From positions 1 to 64,000 of the forward strand of contig JACQFP010000086.1 of NCBI GenBank assembly GCA_016200005.1: a stretch of DNA of 64,000 nt. The letters run 5' to 3'. The stretch is from Verrucomicrobiota bacterium (GTDB lineage Bacteria; Verrucomicrobiota; Verrucomicrobiia; Limisphaerales; PALSA-1396). Under the pieces are notes generated by a model. The model was not told the DNA's origin and made no database searches. It worked only from the letters and a program-made list of their open reading frames with translations. The translations under genes and the position numbers were made by a program. Below are positions 56,760-64,000 of this stretch, piece after piece; within the stretch, counting starts at the first letter, position 1; each line of letters begins with the position of its first letter.

Positions 56760-57910
56760 GGGCAAACTTCAAGCCGCCGCGCCGACCATCGTCCAGCCGA
56801 AGGTTTCCGGGGGCACGCGATCGGTGCGCCAGCGCCACAGGTCCACCGCCATTTGCCGCGCCAGGGCCACGATGGCTTTCTTCTTCGCGGCCTTCGTCGC
56901 CTTCGGATTGCCCAACACGTCCTCCCATTTCTTGACCAGCGCACAGTCGCGTTGCCACACCACCAGCCGCCAGGCCAGTTCCACCAGCGCGGTGCGCCGC
57001 CGCACGTTGCCGTGTTTGGTGATGGGCAAGAGGTGCGTGCTCTTGCCGCTGGCGCTCACCCCGCCGCACAGGCCGGTGTAACTGCCGACTTGGCGCCGGT
57101 TTCGGAAACGATGCCAGTCACCGATCTCGCGTTCGACCACTTCGTAGGTCAGGCCACCCAAGCCTTTGGGACGCCGGGCGGGCGCGGCGGCTTCCAAGGC
57201 GGTGGTGGCCGCGTCCAGTTCGGCGGTCAAGGTGGCCAGCACGCGGCGGAAGCACTCCAACCGTTCAACCAGCCAGGCCGGGAGTTGGCGGTTGAGTTTG
57301 GACCAGCGTCGATCCTCCCACCAGCCCTTCTTTTCGCGCCGGCCCTGGGTGAGCAACAGGCTGCGGCCTTGCGCCGCCACGCGCTTGACCTCGCGTTTGA
57401 GTTGTTCCCGCTGGCGGCTTTCGCTGCGCTTTTGTTCCTCTGCCGGCGTGGGCACGCGCACGGTGGCCAGGGCGTGCGGGTTGCCGGCCACGTAACGATC
57501 CAGCCGCAGGGCCAGTTGTTTGGCGTCGCTCTTGTCGTGGTTGACGCCCTTGTGCTGTTCATCCAGGCAGACGGGTTGGACGACCAGGTTGTGGACGCCC
57601 AACGCCACCAAGTCGCGGTGCAGCCCATAGCCGAAGGGGCCGGCTTCGTAGCAACTATGCACCGCCTCGGCCAGCGGGAGCTGGGTCTTGATCCACGCCA
57701 GGAACTTGGCCGGCGTGAACTTTTGAGCCGGCTGGGGCGCGCTGTGGTCCAGGAGCCGCACAACAACGATGGTGTCGGCGTGAACGTCCAGGCCCAGTTT
57801 GAGGGTTTGCGGTTTTATGATTGCGGCTTGCGCCGCGCCAACTGCAGAAGTATTCAGGTTTTGTTTGATCATAGTGGTGGTGGGTGTAGCGCCTTTGCGC
57901 CCACCCGCCA
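56760..57910 (-). mobile_element. IS110-family insertion sequence, ends not defined
   Basis: The transposase gene fixes the position, but no terminal inverted repeat could be set, as expected for IS110 elements, which often lack them. A hairpin (stem GGTGGG 57879-57884 with CCCACC 57900-57905, plus an inner GCGC pair) lies just before the transposase start and may belong to the element's non-coding end. Exact ends need comparison with an empty site. Confidence 0.6.
56769..57872 (-). CDS. IS110-family transposase (DEDD type)
   Basis: The 367-aa protein starts with the RuvC-like half: KLGLDVHADTIVV (first Asp), CYEAGPFGYGLHRDL (Glu) and NHDKSDAKQLALRL (Asp pair). The C-terminal transposase_20 domain has LTYEVVEREIGDWHRF, VGSYTGLCGGVSASG and ITKHGNVRRRTALVELAW. 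Both halves look intact, so it may still be active. I chose ATG 57872; the frame continues 13 codons upstream over a hairpin. It lies between two gene groups and separates the oxidoreductase gene from any upstream promoter. Confidence 0.9.
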   Translation of the reverse strand: MIKQNLNTSAVGAAQAAIIKPQTLKLGLDVHADTIVVVRLLDHSAPQPAQKFTPAKFLAWIKTQLPLAEAVHSCYEAGPFGYGLHRDLVALGVHNLVVQPVCLDEQHKGVNHDKSDAKQLALRLDRYVAGNPHALATVRVPTPAEEQKRSESRQREQLKREVKRVAAQGRSLLLTQGRREKKGWWEDRRWSKLNRQLPAWLVERLECFRRVLATLTAELDAATTALEAAAPARRPKGLGGLTYEVVEREIGDWHRFRNRRQVGSYTGLCGGVSASGKSTHLLPITKHGNVRRRTALVELAWRLVVWQRDCALVKKWEDVLGNPKATKAAKKKAIVALARQMAVDLWRWRTDRVPPETFGWTMVGAAA

Positions 57911-58066
57911 ACTACTCATGTCATCTCCGAGACGCTTCGCGCACCCGCATTCCCTTTGGTTCAGGGGCGCAAGTCGTGTGCGAAGTCCGGGGAATTCTCT
58001 CCTTGACCGGCGTCAAGGCGTGTTTCTTTCCGGCGCTTCACCCTGCTGTCAAAACAAGGCAAATCT

Positions 58067-59309: not shown

Positions 59310-60551
59310 ATGATACCATCAAGTTCATCGAATGCACTCAGCAGACGCCAGTTCGTTCACACCGTCGGGACAGCGGCAGCAGCGTTCGCCTTGCCTTGGC
59401 CCGCGCGGGCTGACCCGCTTATGAAAGTAAAAATCGCCAAAGTCGAAAGTTTTCCCATCAACTATCCGGTGGTTGGCCGGTTCAAGTTCTTCGAAGGGCC
59501 AAAGGGTCGCCCGTTGGGTCGGGCTGCCGTGGTCGTGAAGATTACCGCGGACGATGGCACCGTCGGCTGGGGCCAGAGCGTCCCATCGCCCCGGTGGAGT
59601 TACGAAACGTTGGAGACGGTTTACTCCACGCTCACGCGCCACCTCACACCGGAGTTGCTCGAACGCGACCCGTTTGACATCGAGGGCATCCACGCCGCGA
59701 TGAGCCGCGCCATTGCGCCGTCGTTCTCCACCGGCCAGCCGATTTGCAAGGCAGGCGTGGACCTCGCGCTGTTCGACCTCATGGGCAAGCTGCTCAAGCA
59801 GTCCGCCGCACAGCGATGGAATCGCAAAAGCCGCGACCGTCTCACATTGAGCTGGACACTCAATCCGCGCACGCCCGACGAAGTCGAACCGCTCATCGCG
59901 CAAGGCCGGGCGCGCGGCTACCGACACTTCAACGTCAAGATCGCGCCCGATCCGAAATTCGACCTTGAACTTTGCCGCCTCGTGAAACGCCTCGTGCCCG
60001 ACGGCTTTCTTTGGGCCGACGCCAACGGCGGCTACGACGAAGAGACCGCGCTGGCCGTCGCGCCCAAGCTGGCGGACATCGGTGTGCCCGTGCTCGAACA
60101 GCCGCTCCCAGCCAATCGCCTCACCGGCTATCGCCGCTTGAAGAAGCAGGGCGCGTTGCCCATCATCATGGACGAAGGCATCGTGTCGTCAGTCGAGTTG
60201 GAGGAATTCATCAAGCTCGACCTGCTCGACGGTGTGGCGATAAAGCCCGCCCGTTGCGGTGGCCTCACCGATGCGCGTCGCCAGATTGAAATCGTCCAGG
60301 GCGCCGGCTTGATGTTTCTCGGCAGCGGCCTGACCGACCCGGACCTTGCCCTGGCCGCTTCGCTCGCGCTCTACGGAGCTTACGATTTGAAATATCCCGC
60401 CGCCTTGAACGGCCCGCAGTTCCTCAGCGGCAGTATTCTCAAGCAGCCGTTCGAGGTGAAGGACGGCGAACTCGCAGTGCCGACCGGACACGGCCTGGGC
60501 GTCGAAGTGGATGAGGCGAAACTGCCGGAGTTGCTGGTGAAGGACGTGTGA
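59310..60551 (+). CDS. Tat-exported enolase-superfamily enzyme (mandelate racemase/muconate lactonizing type)
   Basis: The 413-aa protein has a twin-arginine-like signal (SRRQFVHTVGTAAAAFALP). The enolase-superfamily sites are HFNVKIAPD (Lys), WADANGGYDEE (Asp), LEQPLPANR (Glu), IIMDEGIVSS (Asp/Glu) and GVAIKPARCGG (Lys). This is the mandelate racemase/MLE subgroup, which dehydrates or epimerises sugar acids or cycloisomerises. It follows the oxidoreductase by 4 nt and precedes the PmoA-like gene, so all three may catabolise one sugar acid. Confidence 0.85.
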   Translation: MIPSSSSNALSRRQFVHTVGTAAAAFALPWPARADPLMKVKIAKVESFPINYPVVGRFKFFEGPKGRPLGRAAVVVKITADDGTVGWGQSVPSPRWSYETLETVYSTLTRHLTPELLERDPFDIEGIHAAMSRAIAPSFSTGQPICKAGVDLALFDLMGKLLKQSAAQRWNRKSRDRLTLSWTLNPRTPDEVEPLIAQGRARGYRHFNVKIAPDPKFDLELCRLVKRLVPDGFLWADANGGYDEETALAVAPKLADIGVPVLEQPLPANRLTGYRRLKKQGALPIIMDEGIVSSVELEEFIKLDLLDGVAIKPARCGGLTDARRQIEIVQGAGLMFLGSGLTDPDLALAASLALYGAYDLKYPAALNGPQFLSGSILKQPFEVKDGELAVPTGHGLGVEVDEAKLPELLVKDV

Positions 60552-60740
60552 AATCCGAAATCCGAAATCCGAAATCCGAAAGAAGCCCGAAATCCGAAGC
60601 CCGAAAGTTCGGCCTGGGGGATTTCCCGGGGAGTGTCGAGAGAAGCGCGCGAGGACAGATGGCGTTGTGCGGTGCGAAAGGCCTTCGGATTTCGGGATTC
60701 GGATTTCTTTCGGATTTCGGATTTCGGATTTCGGGCTTCA
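60546..60740. repeat. period-7 repeat arms in inverted orientation
   Basis: Tandem GAAATCC units (about 60546-60610) and tandem GGATTTC units (about 60684-60740) are inverse of each other, separated by about 73 nt that include a CCTGGGGGATTTCCCGGGG dyad. The whole can fold into a long imperfect hairpin. It overlaps the end of the enolase-family gene and the start of the PmoA-like gene. Confidence 0.85.
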
Positions 60741-61690
60741 TCTTCCCGCTCGCACTGGCAATTCATCTGAGCTTCGCCCTCGCCTCGCGTGCTGCCGAGC
60801 CTGCGCCCCGTCCCTCCTTCTTCTTCACCAACGTCACCGACAAGTCACTCGCCTTGTTCGAAGGCAGCCGGCCCGTGTTCGTTTACAACCACGGCGTTCT
60901 GCTCCAGCCTGGTGTGCCCGCCGACCGCGCCCGCAGCACTTACGTGCATCCGATCTACGGTCTCGATGGCGAGGTGCTCACTGACGATTTTCCGAAAGAC
61001 CACTACCATCATCGCGGACTTTTCTGGGCCTGGCCGCACGTCCGCATCGGCGAACAGCACTACGATCTTTGGGCGCTCAACGGAATCGAGCAACGCTTCG
61101 AACGCTGGCTCGCGCGCGAGGCCGACGCCAGCGGCGCGACACTCGGCGTGGAGAACGGTTGGTTTGTCGGTGATCGGAAGGTCATGCAGGAACGGGTCTG
61201 GCTCCACGCCTCGCCGTCGGGCAAAGACGAACGCGCGCTGGATGTCGAATTGACGTGGACGCCCGTCGGCGCGCCGCTCACGCTGGAAGGCGCCGAAGGC
61301 AAGAGCTATGGCGGATTGACACTCCGCTTCGCGCCCCGCACCAACACCGTCATCACCACGCCGCTGGGGCAGGGCGATAAGGACCTCAGCATCACGCGGC
61401 TCCCGTGGGCCGATCTCTCCGCGCGCTTCGCCGGACACGCGCAACCCAGCGGCGCCGCCATTTTCGTCGCGCCCGAGCATCCAGACTTTCCGCCGGAATG
61501 GCTCACGCGCCACTACGGCGTGTTGTGCCTCGGCTGGCCGGGTGTAGTTCCGAAAACATTTCAAGTCGGCGAAAACATTCGATGCCGTTACCGTGTGTGG
61601 ATTCATCGCGGCGCGCCGGACGTGGAAAAGGTAAAGCAAGCGTACCGGGCGTATGCGGAGCCGCAGCCCGTGAAGCGGGAGGGGAAATGA
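60659..61690 (+). CDS. PmoA-like (DUF6807) protein
   Basis: The 343-aa protein has a signal peptide partly encoded by the heptad tract, then the DUF6807 pattern: FVYNHGVLLQPG, RSTYVHPIYGLDGEVLTDDF with DHYHHRGLFWAWPHV (His cluster), NGWFVGDRKVMQERVWLHA and the ending PEHPDFPPEWLTRHYGVLC. The name PmoA for this family is historical and does not imply a methane monooxygenase subunit. ATG 60659 is the most likely start; upstream in-frame codons fall in the repeat. Its function is unproven, probably in sugar or lipid-linked catabolism. Confidence 0.78.
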   Translation: MALCGAKGLRISGFGFLSDFGFRISGFIFPLALAIHLSFALASRAAEPAPRPSFFFTNVTDKSLALFEGSRPVFVYNHGVLLQPGVPADRARSTYVHPIYGLDGEVLTDDFPKDHYHHRGLFWAWPHVRIGEQHYDLWALNGIEQRFERWLAREADASGATLGVENGWFVGDRKVMQERVWLHASPSGKDERALDVELTWTPVGAPLTLEGAEGKSYGGLTLRFAPRTNTVITTPLGQGDKDLSITRLPWADLSARFAGHAQPSGAAIFVAPEHPDFPPEWLTRHYGVLCLGWPGVVPKTFQVGENIRCRYRVWIHRGAPDVEKVKQAYRAYAEPQPVKREGK

Positions 61691-62219
61691 GGTAGTGGTA
61701 CAGTTTGAAGTTTTACGACTCGCCGCGCGCAGCCGATTTCCTTCTCCGCATCGGATGGGGAGAAGGTGGCCGCAGGCCGGATGAGGTGTCTGCACGCAAG
61801 GAATCGAACTCCATTTACATTCAAGTAATCGCCGGCCGTAGCCGGGAAATCGCCGCTGACATTCCGGCAACCTGGCCGGTCTGGTCATCGAGCTAAAGCC
61901 GCAAACCAGAAGGTGAATCGCGCTAGCGGGAAAGCTCCGTTGGGTCAATTGACTTTGGTGAAAACGCGTGAGTCATCGTTGCCGCTCTGGAGAAGTCCAG
62001 CGTCGGCGAGCCAAATCAGTTTTGGATGAAACCATGCCGCAAGGAAGGGTCGAATCGAAGCCTCGACTTCATTTGAACCGCTGATGAACGCTGATTGACG
62101 CCGATTATTTTCCCGCGCACACTCGCCGCATAATGACGACGCGAGCACTCAGTCCCGTGGCGCACTCAATGAGGAACAGCAGAAAGTCTCAAACCTCGGA
62201 GAGGTAGAGAAAGGATGCA
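61691..62219. other. 529-nt gene-free region before the nuclease-NTPase gene
   Basis: Contains CCTTCTCC/GGAGAAGG (61740-61747 with 61759-61766), a GC-rich palindromic repeat seen widely in bacterial genomes, followed by GGTGGCCGCAGGC. It also holds the degenerate GCTGATGAACGCTGATTGAC repeat (about 62080-62103). No terminator or promoter can be defined. Composition becomes AT-richer towards 62200. Confidence 0.5.
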
Positions 62220-64000
62220 ATGTCATCAAAAAAAGAAGCCAAAGCGAAGAAAGTAGCCGCAGAATTCACACTTGCACCAACGGACATAGATGCTGGCTTG
62301 ATGTGGCTTGAAGGACTTGGAGAAGCAAAGTTTCGGGATTCCGTGCTTCAAGAACTTTTTCGGAAAATGCGTGAAGAGGGGGAAATCGAATGGTTCGAAA
62401 ACATCCACGGCAGATTGGACAAGGGTGTGGACTACATTCTAGTCACGCAGTCGTCGCTGGAGAGAAAAGTTCTGGGAATTCAGGTTAAGGGAAAACAAAT
62501 TAGCAGAGCGGGAGGAAATGGTTCGCTCTCGGCCGTAGATATAGCGGGCGAGTGTGAGGCGGCAATGAAGCATGAGTTTCAAGTGCAGGGAGCGAAGCGG
62601 CGGCTTGACTCAATCGCCGTGTGGTCTTCGGCCCATATTACGCCCGATGCCGAAGAAGAGTTTACAAAACCCGGCCTCGCGTATCGCATACAGGTTAAGA
62701 AACCCAGAGACGTGTTTTCCCTGATCGAACAATTCGCGCCAGCACAGTTGGGCAATGTGCCTCAGCTTGCGCTTGTGAAGTATATCAAGGAGCAAGCCGA
62801 TCCAGAGCCAGAAGCGGTCCGTGTGTTTGGATGTCCGATAAATCCCAAAATCCATTTTCTCGAACCCGAGCTTTCAGAGTTTGCTCCAGCTTCTATGGAG
62901 AGCATGAAGACTGAAGGCGGGCATCTCCGGCCAAAGAAGTCTTCGGCCACACTAGATAAAATACTCGAAGACAGCAGACATACAGCACTGTTCGCAGGCG
63001 AATTAAGCGGAAAAAGTTATTTGCTAAAAAGGTGCAGGGCCGTTTTTGCAGAGCGCCGAAAACTTTCAATTCTTTTAGATGCGACCCAGTTGACAGAGAT
63101 TCCTCGCTCTGCGCAACGGTTGGTTTCAGACGCGTTGGAGTTTCTTTCTCCGCAACAAGCCGAATCATTCGCGCGGGGTGCGGGCGTCGTGCTTCTGATA
63201 GACAATGTTGACCGGATTCCTCAACCTGTCCGTGAATGGCTGTTCGCCCTCGACTCAAGGCAATTCAGGGTTATTGCAACCGGCAGGTCAATTCTTGTGC
63301 CACAGCAAGTCGCCACGGTTTACATCACAGGAACGAAACTGGGCAGTCTTCCAAGGTTTTTGCGAAGCCTGAATGTGCAACACAGCAAAGGACTCTTGGA
63401 CCGGGCTCAGTCTTTTATTGAGCGGACTTTGGCAACTTCACGCCTGCCAAAGAATGCATTCACCATTTCGATCATGTTGCAGGAATGTCAGCATGGAGGT
63501 TCAAAATTCAGCACGCCAACGATGGGGCGGCTGATTGAGCGATTTGTAGAACTGCAATTAGGGTCGCATTCAGATGCGACCTTCATGGTGGACTTTGAAA
63601 CCAAGCGCGACTTCCTCTCTCATTTGGCCGGGAGGGTTCAATCAGGGATGTCTTTGGTAGAATTCCGCCGGAGGCTCGCACGGTTTATTGAAGCCAGCAA
63701 ACATCCGCAAAGCGTAGAGGACTTTATCCAGGATCTTCGTAAGAGCGGAGTGTTTGTCTTCTGCGGGGACAAGGTGAAGTGGGCTCACCCGGCGTTTAAG
63801 CAATATTTTTGGGTTCGTAATTTGGTAAGCAACGGAAAGCACGAACTGATTGCAAAGGCACTTTGCCAGCGATTTAATCCAACCTTGGCTGCACTCGCTG
63901 GGTCACAAATAAAAGCCAAGGACCTTCCGGCTTTGATTCAACCTTTGATAGATGAAGTTTCCAGGACACCCCTTCCGAGCCTGCAATCTTTAGTTCCGGA
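62220..64000 (+). CDS. predicted PD-(D/E)XK nuclease-P-loop NTPase fusion, 3' truncated by window (candidate defence protein)
   Basis: Open for at least 593 codons to the window edge. Residues 35-135 look like a restriction-endonuclease fold: FRDSVLQELFRKM, KGVDYILV (D71) and GIQVKGK (Q88, K90), the D-x(16)-QxK pattern of Mrr-like nucleases. Residues 250-480 have a P-loop NTPase: AGELSGKS (260-266, Walker A) and VVLLIDNVD (323-331, Walker B), then an ATGRS sensor-like turn. A helical region follows. This layout is that of Avs-type STAND anti-phage proteins (nuclease, NTPase, then a sensor of repeats), but the sensor lies outside the window. Base composition is AT-richer than the left side. 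I started at ATG 62220 with GAGAAAGG upstream. Confidence 0.75.
   Translation, partial: MSSKKEAKAKKVAAEFTLAPTDIDAGLMWLEGLGEAKFRDSVLQELFRKMREEGEIEWFENIHGRLDKGVDYILVTQSSLERKVLGIQVKGKQISRAGGNGSLSAVDIAGECEAAMKHEFQVQGAKRRLDSIAVWSSAHITPDAEEEFTKPGLAYRIQVKKPRDVFSLIEQFAPAQLGNVPQLALVKYIKEQADPEPEAVRVFGCPINPKIHFLEPELSEFAPASMESMKTEGGHLRPKKSSATLDKILEDSRHTALFAGELSGKSYLLKRCRAVFAERRKLSILLDATQLTEIPRSAQRLVSDALEFLSPQQAESFARGAGVVLLIDNVDRIPQPVREWLFALDSRQFRVIATGRSILVPQQVATVYITGTKLGSLPRFLRSLNVQHSKGLLDRAQSFIERTLATSRLPKNAFTISIMLQECQHGGSKFSTPTMGRLIERFVELQLGSHSDATFMVDFETKRDFLSHLAGRVQSGMSLVEFRRRLARFIEASKHPQSVEDFIQDLRKSGVFVFCGDKVKWAHPAFKQYFWVRNLVSNGKHELIAKALCQRFNPTLAALAGSQIKAKDLPALIQPLIDEVSRTPLPSLQSLVP

What the first reader, a model, noticed from the sequence alone, without database searches (positions are those of the whole stretch)
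62220..64000. Possible Avs-like nuclease-STAND NTPase at the window edge
Reading the plus strand gives a long open frame to the end of the window. Its first domain has the D-x(n)-QxK arrangement of a PD-(D/E)XK nuclease (D71, Q88, K90), followed by a P-loop NTPase (GELSGKS, VVLLIDNVD). Nuclease plus STAND NTPase is the build of antiviral Avs proteins and several uncharacterised defence genes. The family match is inferred from motifs only; the NTPase could instead be of a different AAA or SMC-like type, and the sensor domain is out of view.
Basis: partly seen in the sequence, partly recalled or inferred. Interest (0 to 1): 0.85.

Follow-up and report, generated by a model that had tools for sequence, protein, structure and literature searches.

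The report
Bacterial NLR-like DNase immune protein
The gene at the window's edge encodes a bacterial cousin of our own inflammasome (NLR) proteins: a DNA-cutting domain joined to a NACHT-type ATPase, most likely an anti-phage alarm that destroys DNA on infection; this build is already known in bacteria, but this copy has an unfamiliar tail and no close relative was found.

Summary
The frame starts at 62220, has a ribosome-binding site, and closes beyond the window at contig position 64784: one 854-residue protein. Residues 42-174 are an Mrr-like PD-(D/E)XK nuclease domain with D71, Q88 and K90 in the catalytic places. Residues ~215-590 are a NACHT-type STAND NTPase; the predicted fold matches NLRP3/NOD2 at Z 16-17.5. 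Residues 42-597 align end to end with a nuclease-NACHT family whose closest characterised members are bNACHT25/32 (anti-phage DNases); D71 falls on the residue numbered D48 in two relatives, and D48A abolishes defence by bNACHT25/32. It is not an Avs: no Avs profile matches, and its tail is only ~294 residues. It is not DS-8: the NTPase is distantly related, the effector differs. The tail (561-854) matches nothing and has no NCH1 domain. The gene is GC-poor (0.50 against 0.62) and sits next to a type II restriction-modification system. No whole-length homologue turned up in three overlapping genome sets (196, 388, 320), plasmids, phages or viral contigs. Verdict: a divergent new member of a known kind, with an unassigned sensor. 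Anti-phage function is inferred, not shown.

The parts
62210..62215 (+). AAAGGA, likely ribosome-binding site, 5-10 bases before the ATG
   Evidence: read directly
62220..64000 (+). Open frame of the PD-(D/E)XK-NACHT protein, residues 1-593 of 854; the gene ends at contig C86 position 64784, outside the window
62343..62741 (+). Residues 42-174: Mrr-like PD-(D/E)XK nuclease domain (effector)
   Evidence: HMM of 5 nuclease-NACHT N-termini 21.2 bits, 0 of 1000 shuffles reach it; hhalign 93% over 42-174; wider HMM 23.6 bits; PF04471 E=0.008 on residues 1-160, below its cut-off
62430..62432 (+). D71, catalytic Asp; falls on the residue numbered D48 in two relatives (D48 is essential in bNACHT25/32)
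   Evidence: alignment; D48A result in PMC12169576
62481..62489 (+). Q88-V89-K90, the QxK half of the active site
62862..63989 (+). Residues ~215-590: NACHT-type STAND NTPase with its helical and winged-helix parts
   Evidence: AlphaFold2 model, pLDDT mostly 60-93 from residue 243 to about 580; VIA-align Z 17.5 to NLRP3 over 322 residues, rmsd 4.2; Foldseek hits NLRC4, NLRP3/7/9, Avs3, Avs4; hhalign to nuclease-NACHT core 96.6%
62994..63017 (+). Walker A, AGELSGKS (K265)
63186..63212 (+). Walker B, VVLLIDNVD (D328)
63900..64000 (+). Start of the C-terminal region (residues 561-854, the rest beyond the window to 64784): presumed sensor; no family match
   Evidence: Pfam, PADLOC: nothing useful even at E 10; hhalign 0.2% to DS-8-type and NCH1-bearing tails

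Best explanation
This is a single-gene bacterial NLR-like (bNACHT-type) immune protein. In the resting state the C-terminal region (561-854) and bound ADP would hold the NACHT module closed. A phage-derived cue, or a host factor disturbed by phage, reaches the C-terminal region; the NACHT module exchanges nucleotide and oligomerises; the N-terminal Mrr-like PD-(D/E)XK domains are brought together and cut DNA, stopping phage and probably the host cell. Shown here: the domain order, the intact catalytic and Walker residues, the NACHT fold, kinship over residues 42-597 with the nuclease-NACHT build of which tested examples exist, and the defence-gene neighbourhood. Inferred: DNase activity, oligomerisation, the trigger, and that the C-terminal region is the sensor.
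For: Intact D71/Q88/K90 and Walker A/B. Nuclease homology, 0 of 1000 shuffles. NACHT fold. Alignment over 42-597 with nuclease-NACHT proteins at 98.4% probability, with controls. D71 falls on the D48 position of two relatives; in bNACHT25/32 D48A abolishes phage defence and infection triggers DNA degradation (PMC12169576). Low GC against flanks, absent from the one same-genus genome held and from the relatives searched, next to a type II restriction-modification pair: the usual marks of a laterally moved defence gene.
Against: No experiment. Pfam's NACHT model does not match directly. The nuclease domain was not modelled confidently (pLDDT about 30-45, and 43.5 when folded alone), so its fold rests on profile alignment. 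The C-terminal region has no relative that could confirm a sensor. Several of the plasmid relatives lack the Q of QxK, so activity within the family may vary.
Confidence: 0.78

Rival explanations
1. It is an Avs (AVAST) protein: a STAND NTPase with a nuclease that directly binds a conserved phage protein (terminase or portal) through a TPR-like sensor.
For: Same order of parts, effector then STAND NTPase then sensor; Avs3 and Avs4 are among the Foldseek matches (8dgc, 8dgf).
Against: No Avs profile in PADLOC at E<=1; NLR NACHT structures match best; the tail is 294 residues with no TPR match, while the Avs chains are 1534-2028 residues long.
Confidence: 0.05
2. It belongs to the DS-8 family, a NACHT defence protein, with the metallophosphatase replaced by a nuclease.
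For: NF053861 (DS8_antiphage) matches at E=5e-11 over two stretches of the NTPase; hhalign 92% to the NTPase of DS-8 and TIR-type relatives. The DS-8 NTPase and tail do swap effectors: TIR versions exist.
Against: 41 bits against a cut-off of 790; an ordinary nuclease-NACHT protein scores the same (39.7 bits); the nuclease-NACHT profile fits better (96.6% against 92.3% on the NTPase); the tails do not align.
Confidence: 0.1
3. It is a modification-dependent or DNA-sensing restriction enzyme that uses the STAND-like NTPase as a motor or gate and acts on incoming DNA directly, possibly working with the neighbouring methyltransferase.
For: Mrr-like nucleases are often modification-dependent (own knowledge); a methyltransferase gene ends about 30 bp away on the opposite strand.
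Against: The neighbouring methyltransferase has its own restriction enzyme partner, as on other plasmids; the NTPase is NLR-type, not a translocase.
Confidence: 0.07

Closest known systems
bNACHT25 and bNACHT32 (clade 6 bNACHT proteins; PMC12169576)
   Same: N-terminal PD-(D/E)XK DNase, central NACHT module, C-terminal sensing region; the essential D48 matches D71 by position in family members; alignment with proteins of this build runs over residues 42-597.
   Different: No NCH1 C-terminal helical domain (Pfam, hhalign); sequence too far for Pfam's NACHT model; complete QxK.
DS-8 (NF053861; metallophosphatase-NACHT; PMC13092281)
   Same: NACHT NTPase related at profile level.
   Different: Metallophosphatase effector in DS-8, nuclease here; score far under cut-off; C-terminal region does not align.
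Avs3 / Avs4 (AVAST)
   Same: STAND NTPase with an N-terminal nuclease effector; shared NTPase fold.
   Different: No profile match; much shorter; no TPR match in the tail.
Uncharacterised nuclease-NACHT proteins: one in the same phylum (L098), and on plasmids of Deinococcus and Malaciobacter (L042, L043)
   Same: Same effector and NACHT order; L098 and the Deinococcus protein keep QxK.
   Different: About 15-25% identical to the focal protein; blastp of the focal protein against L098 finds no significant match.

Membership tests
PD-(D/E)XK-NACHT (bNACHT-type) immune proteins | N-terminal PD-(D/E)XK nuclease domain with catalytic residues | tested here: met
   Profile 21.2-23.6 bits, 0 of 1000 shuffles; D71, Q88, K90 aligned. 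By sequence profile only; the fold model of this domain was too weak to use
PD-(D/E)XK-NACHT (bNACHT-type) immune proteins | Central NACHT-type STAND NTPase | tested here: met
   Fold: Z 16-17.5 to NLRP3/NOD2 NACHT; hhalign 96.6% to nuclease-NACHT core. Pfam's NACHT model itself gives no hit
PD-(D/E)XK-NACHT (bNACHT-type) immune proteins | Anti-phage activity needing nuclease and NTPase | not testable with these tools
   Needs expression and phage challenge
bNACHT clade 6 (bNACHT25/32) | NCH1 C-terminal helical domain (PF22728) | tested here: not met
   No PF22728 hit for the tail at E<=10, while the L011 protein gives 5.6e-32; hhalign of the tails 0.2%
bNACHT clade 6 (bNACHT25/32) | Placement in clade 6 of the NACHT tree | not tested
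   No reference tree of bNACHT clades was on hand
Avs (AVAST) | Sequence match to Avs profiles | tested here: not met
   PADLOC: 0 families at E<=1
Avs (AVAST) | Long TPR-like C-terminal sensor | tested here: inconclusive
   No TPR hit in the 294-residue tail, but it could not be folded here and divergent repeats can escape profiles
DS-8 | N-terminal metallophosphatase | tested here: not met
   No metallophosphatase match; the N-terminus is a nuclease
DS-8 | NF053861 score over the curated cut-off (790 bits) | tested here: not met
   41 bits

The most novel reading that the evidence does not exclude
The protein is the first seen member of a NACHT-DNase lineage with a C-terminal sensor of a new kind (residues 561-854), which recognises a phage or host signal that no known bNACHT, Avs or DS-8 protein recognises.
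Probability: 0.3. Interest if true: 0.5.

Novelty: new member of a known kind. Interest (0 to 1): 0.36.

Why it matters
It extends NLR-like DNase immunity to a genome of the class Verrucomicrobiia with a protein that standard profiles miss: PADLOC and Pfam's NACHT model both pass over it. It offers a test of whether the nuclease-NACHT core works with an unrelated sensor, and so how freely these bacterial inflammasome cousins exchange their sensing parts.

Tried and rejected
Full-protein relatives: none in 196 + 388 + 320 genomes (overlapping sets), plasmids, phages, or viral and genome contigs by peptide pattern. DS-8 membership: first favoured because NF053861 gave E=5e-11, dropped when a plain nuclease-NACHT protein gave 1.3e-10 and the nuclease-NACHT profile fitted better. 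Solved-structure sequence search: only chance matches. VIA-align listed no nuclease match, which says nothing, as the nuclease part was barely tested. Empty-site test in the same-genus genome failed: neither flank has a counterpart there. No tRNA or Rfam RNA at the locus. Promoter and terminator scans were at or near shuffle level. The C-terminal region was not folded because the folder takes only window sequence and certain fetched loci.

Full report
OBSERVATION. The + strand frame from ATG 62220 is open to the end of the window (593 codons), with AAAGGA at 62210-62215. The window is the first 64 kb of contig C86 (125,750 bp) of a 6.54 Mb genome. Read beyond the edge, the frame ends at contig position 64784 and encodes 854 residues. 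The genome shares its class with G243, whose contig C102 has the same length as PBYS01000102.1, a Puniceicoccaceae MAG, and gave the identical protein. The host is therefore most likely a member of the Verrucomicrobiota, class Verrucomicrobiia; this is inference from that link.

NUCLEASE. Pfam's Mrr_cat (PF04471) gives E=0.008 on residues 1-160, below its cut-off. A stronger test used N-termini of five nuclease-NACHT proteins, four from plasmids and one from the same phylum: the profile scores the focal protein 21.2 bits, the best of 1000 shuffles 9.9, and hhalign aligns residues 42-174 at 93% (best of 60 shuffles 1.2%). Adding four further proteins raises it to 23.6 bits. The pattern HGxxxKGxD...GxQxKxxxI and the later helix and strand motifs are kept. 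The focal protein retains the full D...QxK, which some plasmid relatives have lost at the Q.

NTPASE. AlphaFold2 with 13 sequences gives usable confidence from residue about 243 to 580 (ten-residue blocks mostly 64-93). VIA-align puts NLRP3, NLRP1, NLRP9 and NOD2 first, Z 16.5-17.5 over about 320-340 residues at rmsd about 4-5, well above replication clamp loaders (Z about 10-11). Foldseek lists archaeal STAND-type ATPases, NLRC4, NLRPs, Avs3 and Avs4. So this is a STAND NTPase of the NACHT/NLR type and not an SMC or housekeeping AAA protein. Pfam's NACHT model itself does not match.

FAMILY. Against a profile of full-length nuclease-NACHT proteins the focal protein aligns over residues 42-597 at 98.4% probability (score 123.5; best of 60 shuffles 24.8; reversed 19.0). 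NCBIfam's DS8_antiphage model also matches the NTPase (E=5e-11), but at 41 bits against a 790 cut-off and no better than an ordinary nuclease-NACHT protein (39.7 bits). DS-8 is a metallophosphatase-NACHT protein (PMC13092281). The best characterised proteins of the present build are bNACHT25 and bNACHT32: PD-(D/E)XK DNase, NACHT, NCH1; D48A abolishes defence, and infection triggers DNA degradation (PMC12169576). In the Pseudomonas and Enterobacter plasmid relatives the aligned Asp is residue 48 and pairs with D71 here. I did not have the bNACHT25 sequence itself, so that equation is by position.

C-TERMINAL REGION. Residues 561-854 match nothing useful in Pfam or PADLOC and do not align with the tails of NCH1-bearing proteins or of the DS-8/TIR family (0.2% each). 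The only Pfam line, INTS5_N at E=0.079, is chance level. By position in STAND proteins it is the presumed sensor; that is inference.

NEIGHBOURHOOD. GC falls from about 0.62 to 0.50 over the gene and is 0.56-0.58 over the next two genes. Convergent with it, about 30 bp away, is a DNA methyltransferase (contig 64815-65858, minus; PF01555 and PADLOC MTase_II). Divergent from that is a protein with an HTH and a putative restriction domain (contig 65924-66820, plus). On the Acidiphilium plasmid pACMV5 the HTH and the restriction part are two separate genes next to the methyltransferase, and enterobacterial plasmids carry the pair. So the neighbour is most likely a type II restriction-modification system with a fused control domain. 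An IS110-type transposase lies at 56769-57911. Further right, 85.8-97.5 kb, is a type I system (HsdR, HsdS, HsdM) with an embedded AAA_13 candidate defence gene (PDC-S06) and a Fic protein.

DISTRIBUTION. No relative over the whole length was found in 196 close genomes, 388 of the phylum and 320 of the order (overlapping sets), nor in plasmids, phages or viral contigs. Profile searches do find other nuclease-NACHT proteins in the phylum (L011/L097, L098).

MECHANISM. Best model: sensor engagement by a phage-derived or phage-disturbed signal, NACHT nucleotide exchange and oligomerisation, activation of the clustered PD-(D/E)XK domains, DNA degradation and arrest or death of the infected cell. 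Domain order, intact motifs, NTPase fold and kinship are shown here; every step of activation is inferred from bNACHT25/32 and other STAND proteins.

JUDGEMENT. A divergent member of a known kind with an unassigned sensor. Interest is moderate: the build is known and experimentally characterised elsewhere; what is new is the sequence distance, the missing NCH1 and the tail.

Noticed in passing
contig C86 64815-66820 (L002 4816-6821), just beyond the window: Type II restriction-modification system: methyltransferase divergent from an HTH-restriction enzyme fusion; on Acidiphilium plasmid pACMV5 the HTH and the restriction part are separate genes (L109).
   Followed up: yes
contig C86 85758-97495 (L003 6259-17996): Type I restriction-modification operon (HsdR, HsdS, HsdM) with an embedded AAA_13 ATPase matching PADLOC candidate PDC-S06 (1e-290) and a Fic-domain gene.
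   Followed up: partly
L006 1078-3657; L055-L059; plasmids NZ_CP020429.2, NZ_CP034287.1, NZ_PP589746.1: The NACHT module and C-terminal region of DS-8 also occur with a TIR domain in place of the metallophosphatase (NF053861 positions 299-994 matched at 1e-142), in Bacillota, Vibrio, Bacteroidales, Fibrobacterales and Verrucomicrobiota: an apparent effector swap, and a likely unlabelled defence family.
   Followed up: partly
L104 1459-2211; L086 1483-2436 (minus); L106 1420-2448 (minus): The same Mrr-like nuclease domain with a QxK-type motif occurs in short proteins without a NACHT module in the same phylum.
   Followed up: partly
60548-60770: Copies of CGGATTTCGGATT and its reverse complement, facing each other about 150 bp apart, give an ORF start rich in ISDFGFR before the DUF6807 gene; similar stretches match in contigs C47 and C68. 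The true start of that gene is probably further downstream.
   Followed up: partly
56769-57911 (minus): IS110-family transposase (PF02371) about 4.3 kb upstream of the low-GC defence cluster.
   Followed up: no
L003 72-2441: A protein with the hydrazine synthase alpha middle domain (PF18582, 1.7e-22), of unclear role here.
   Followed up: no
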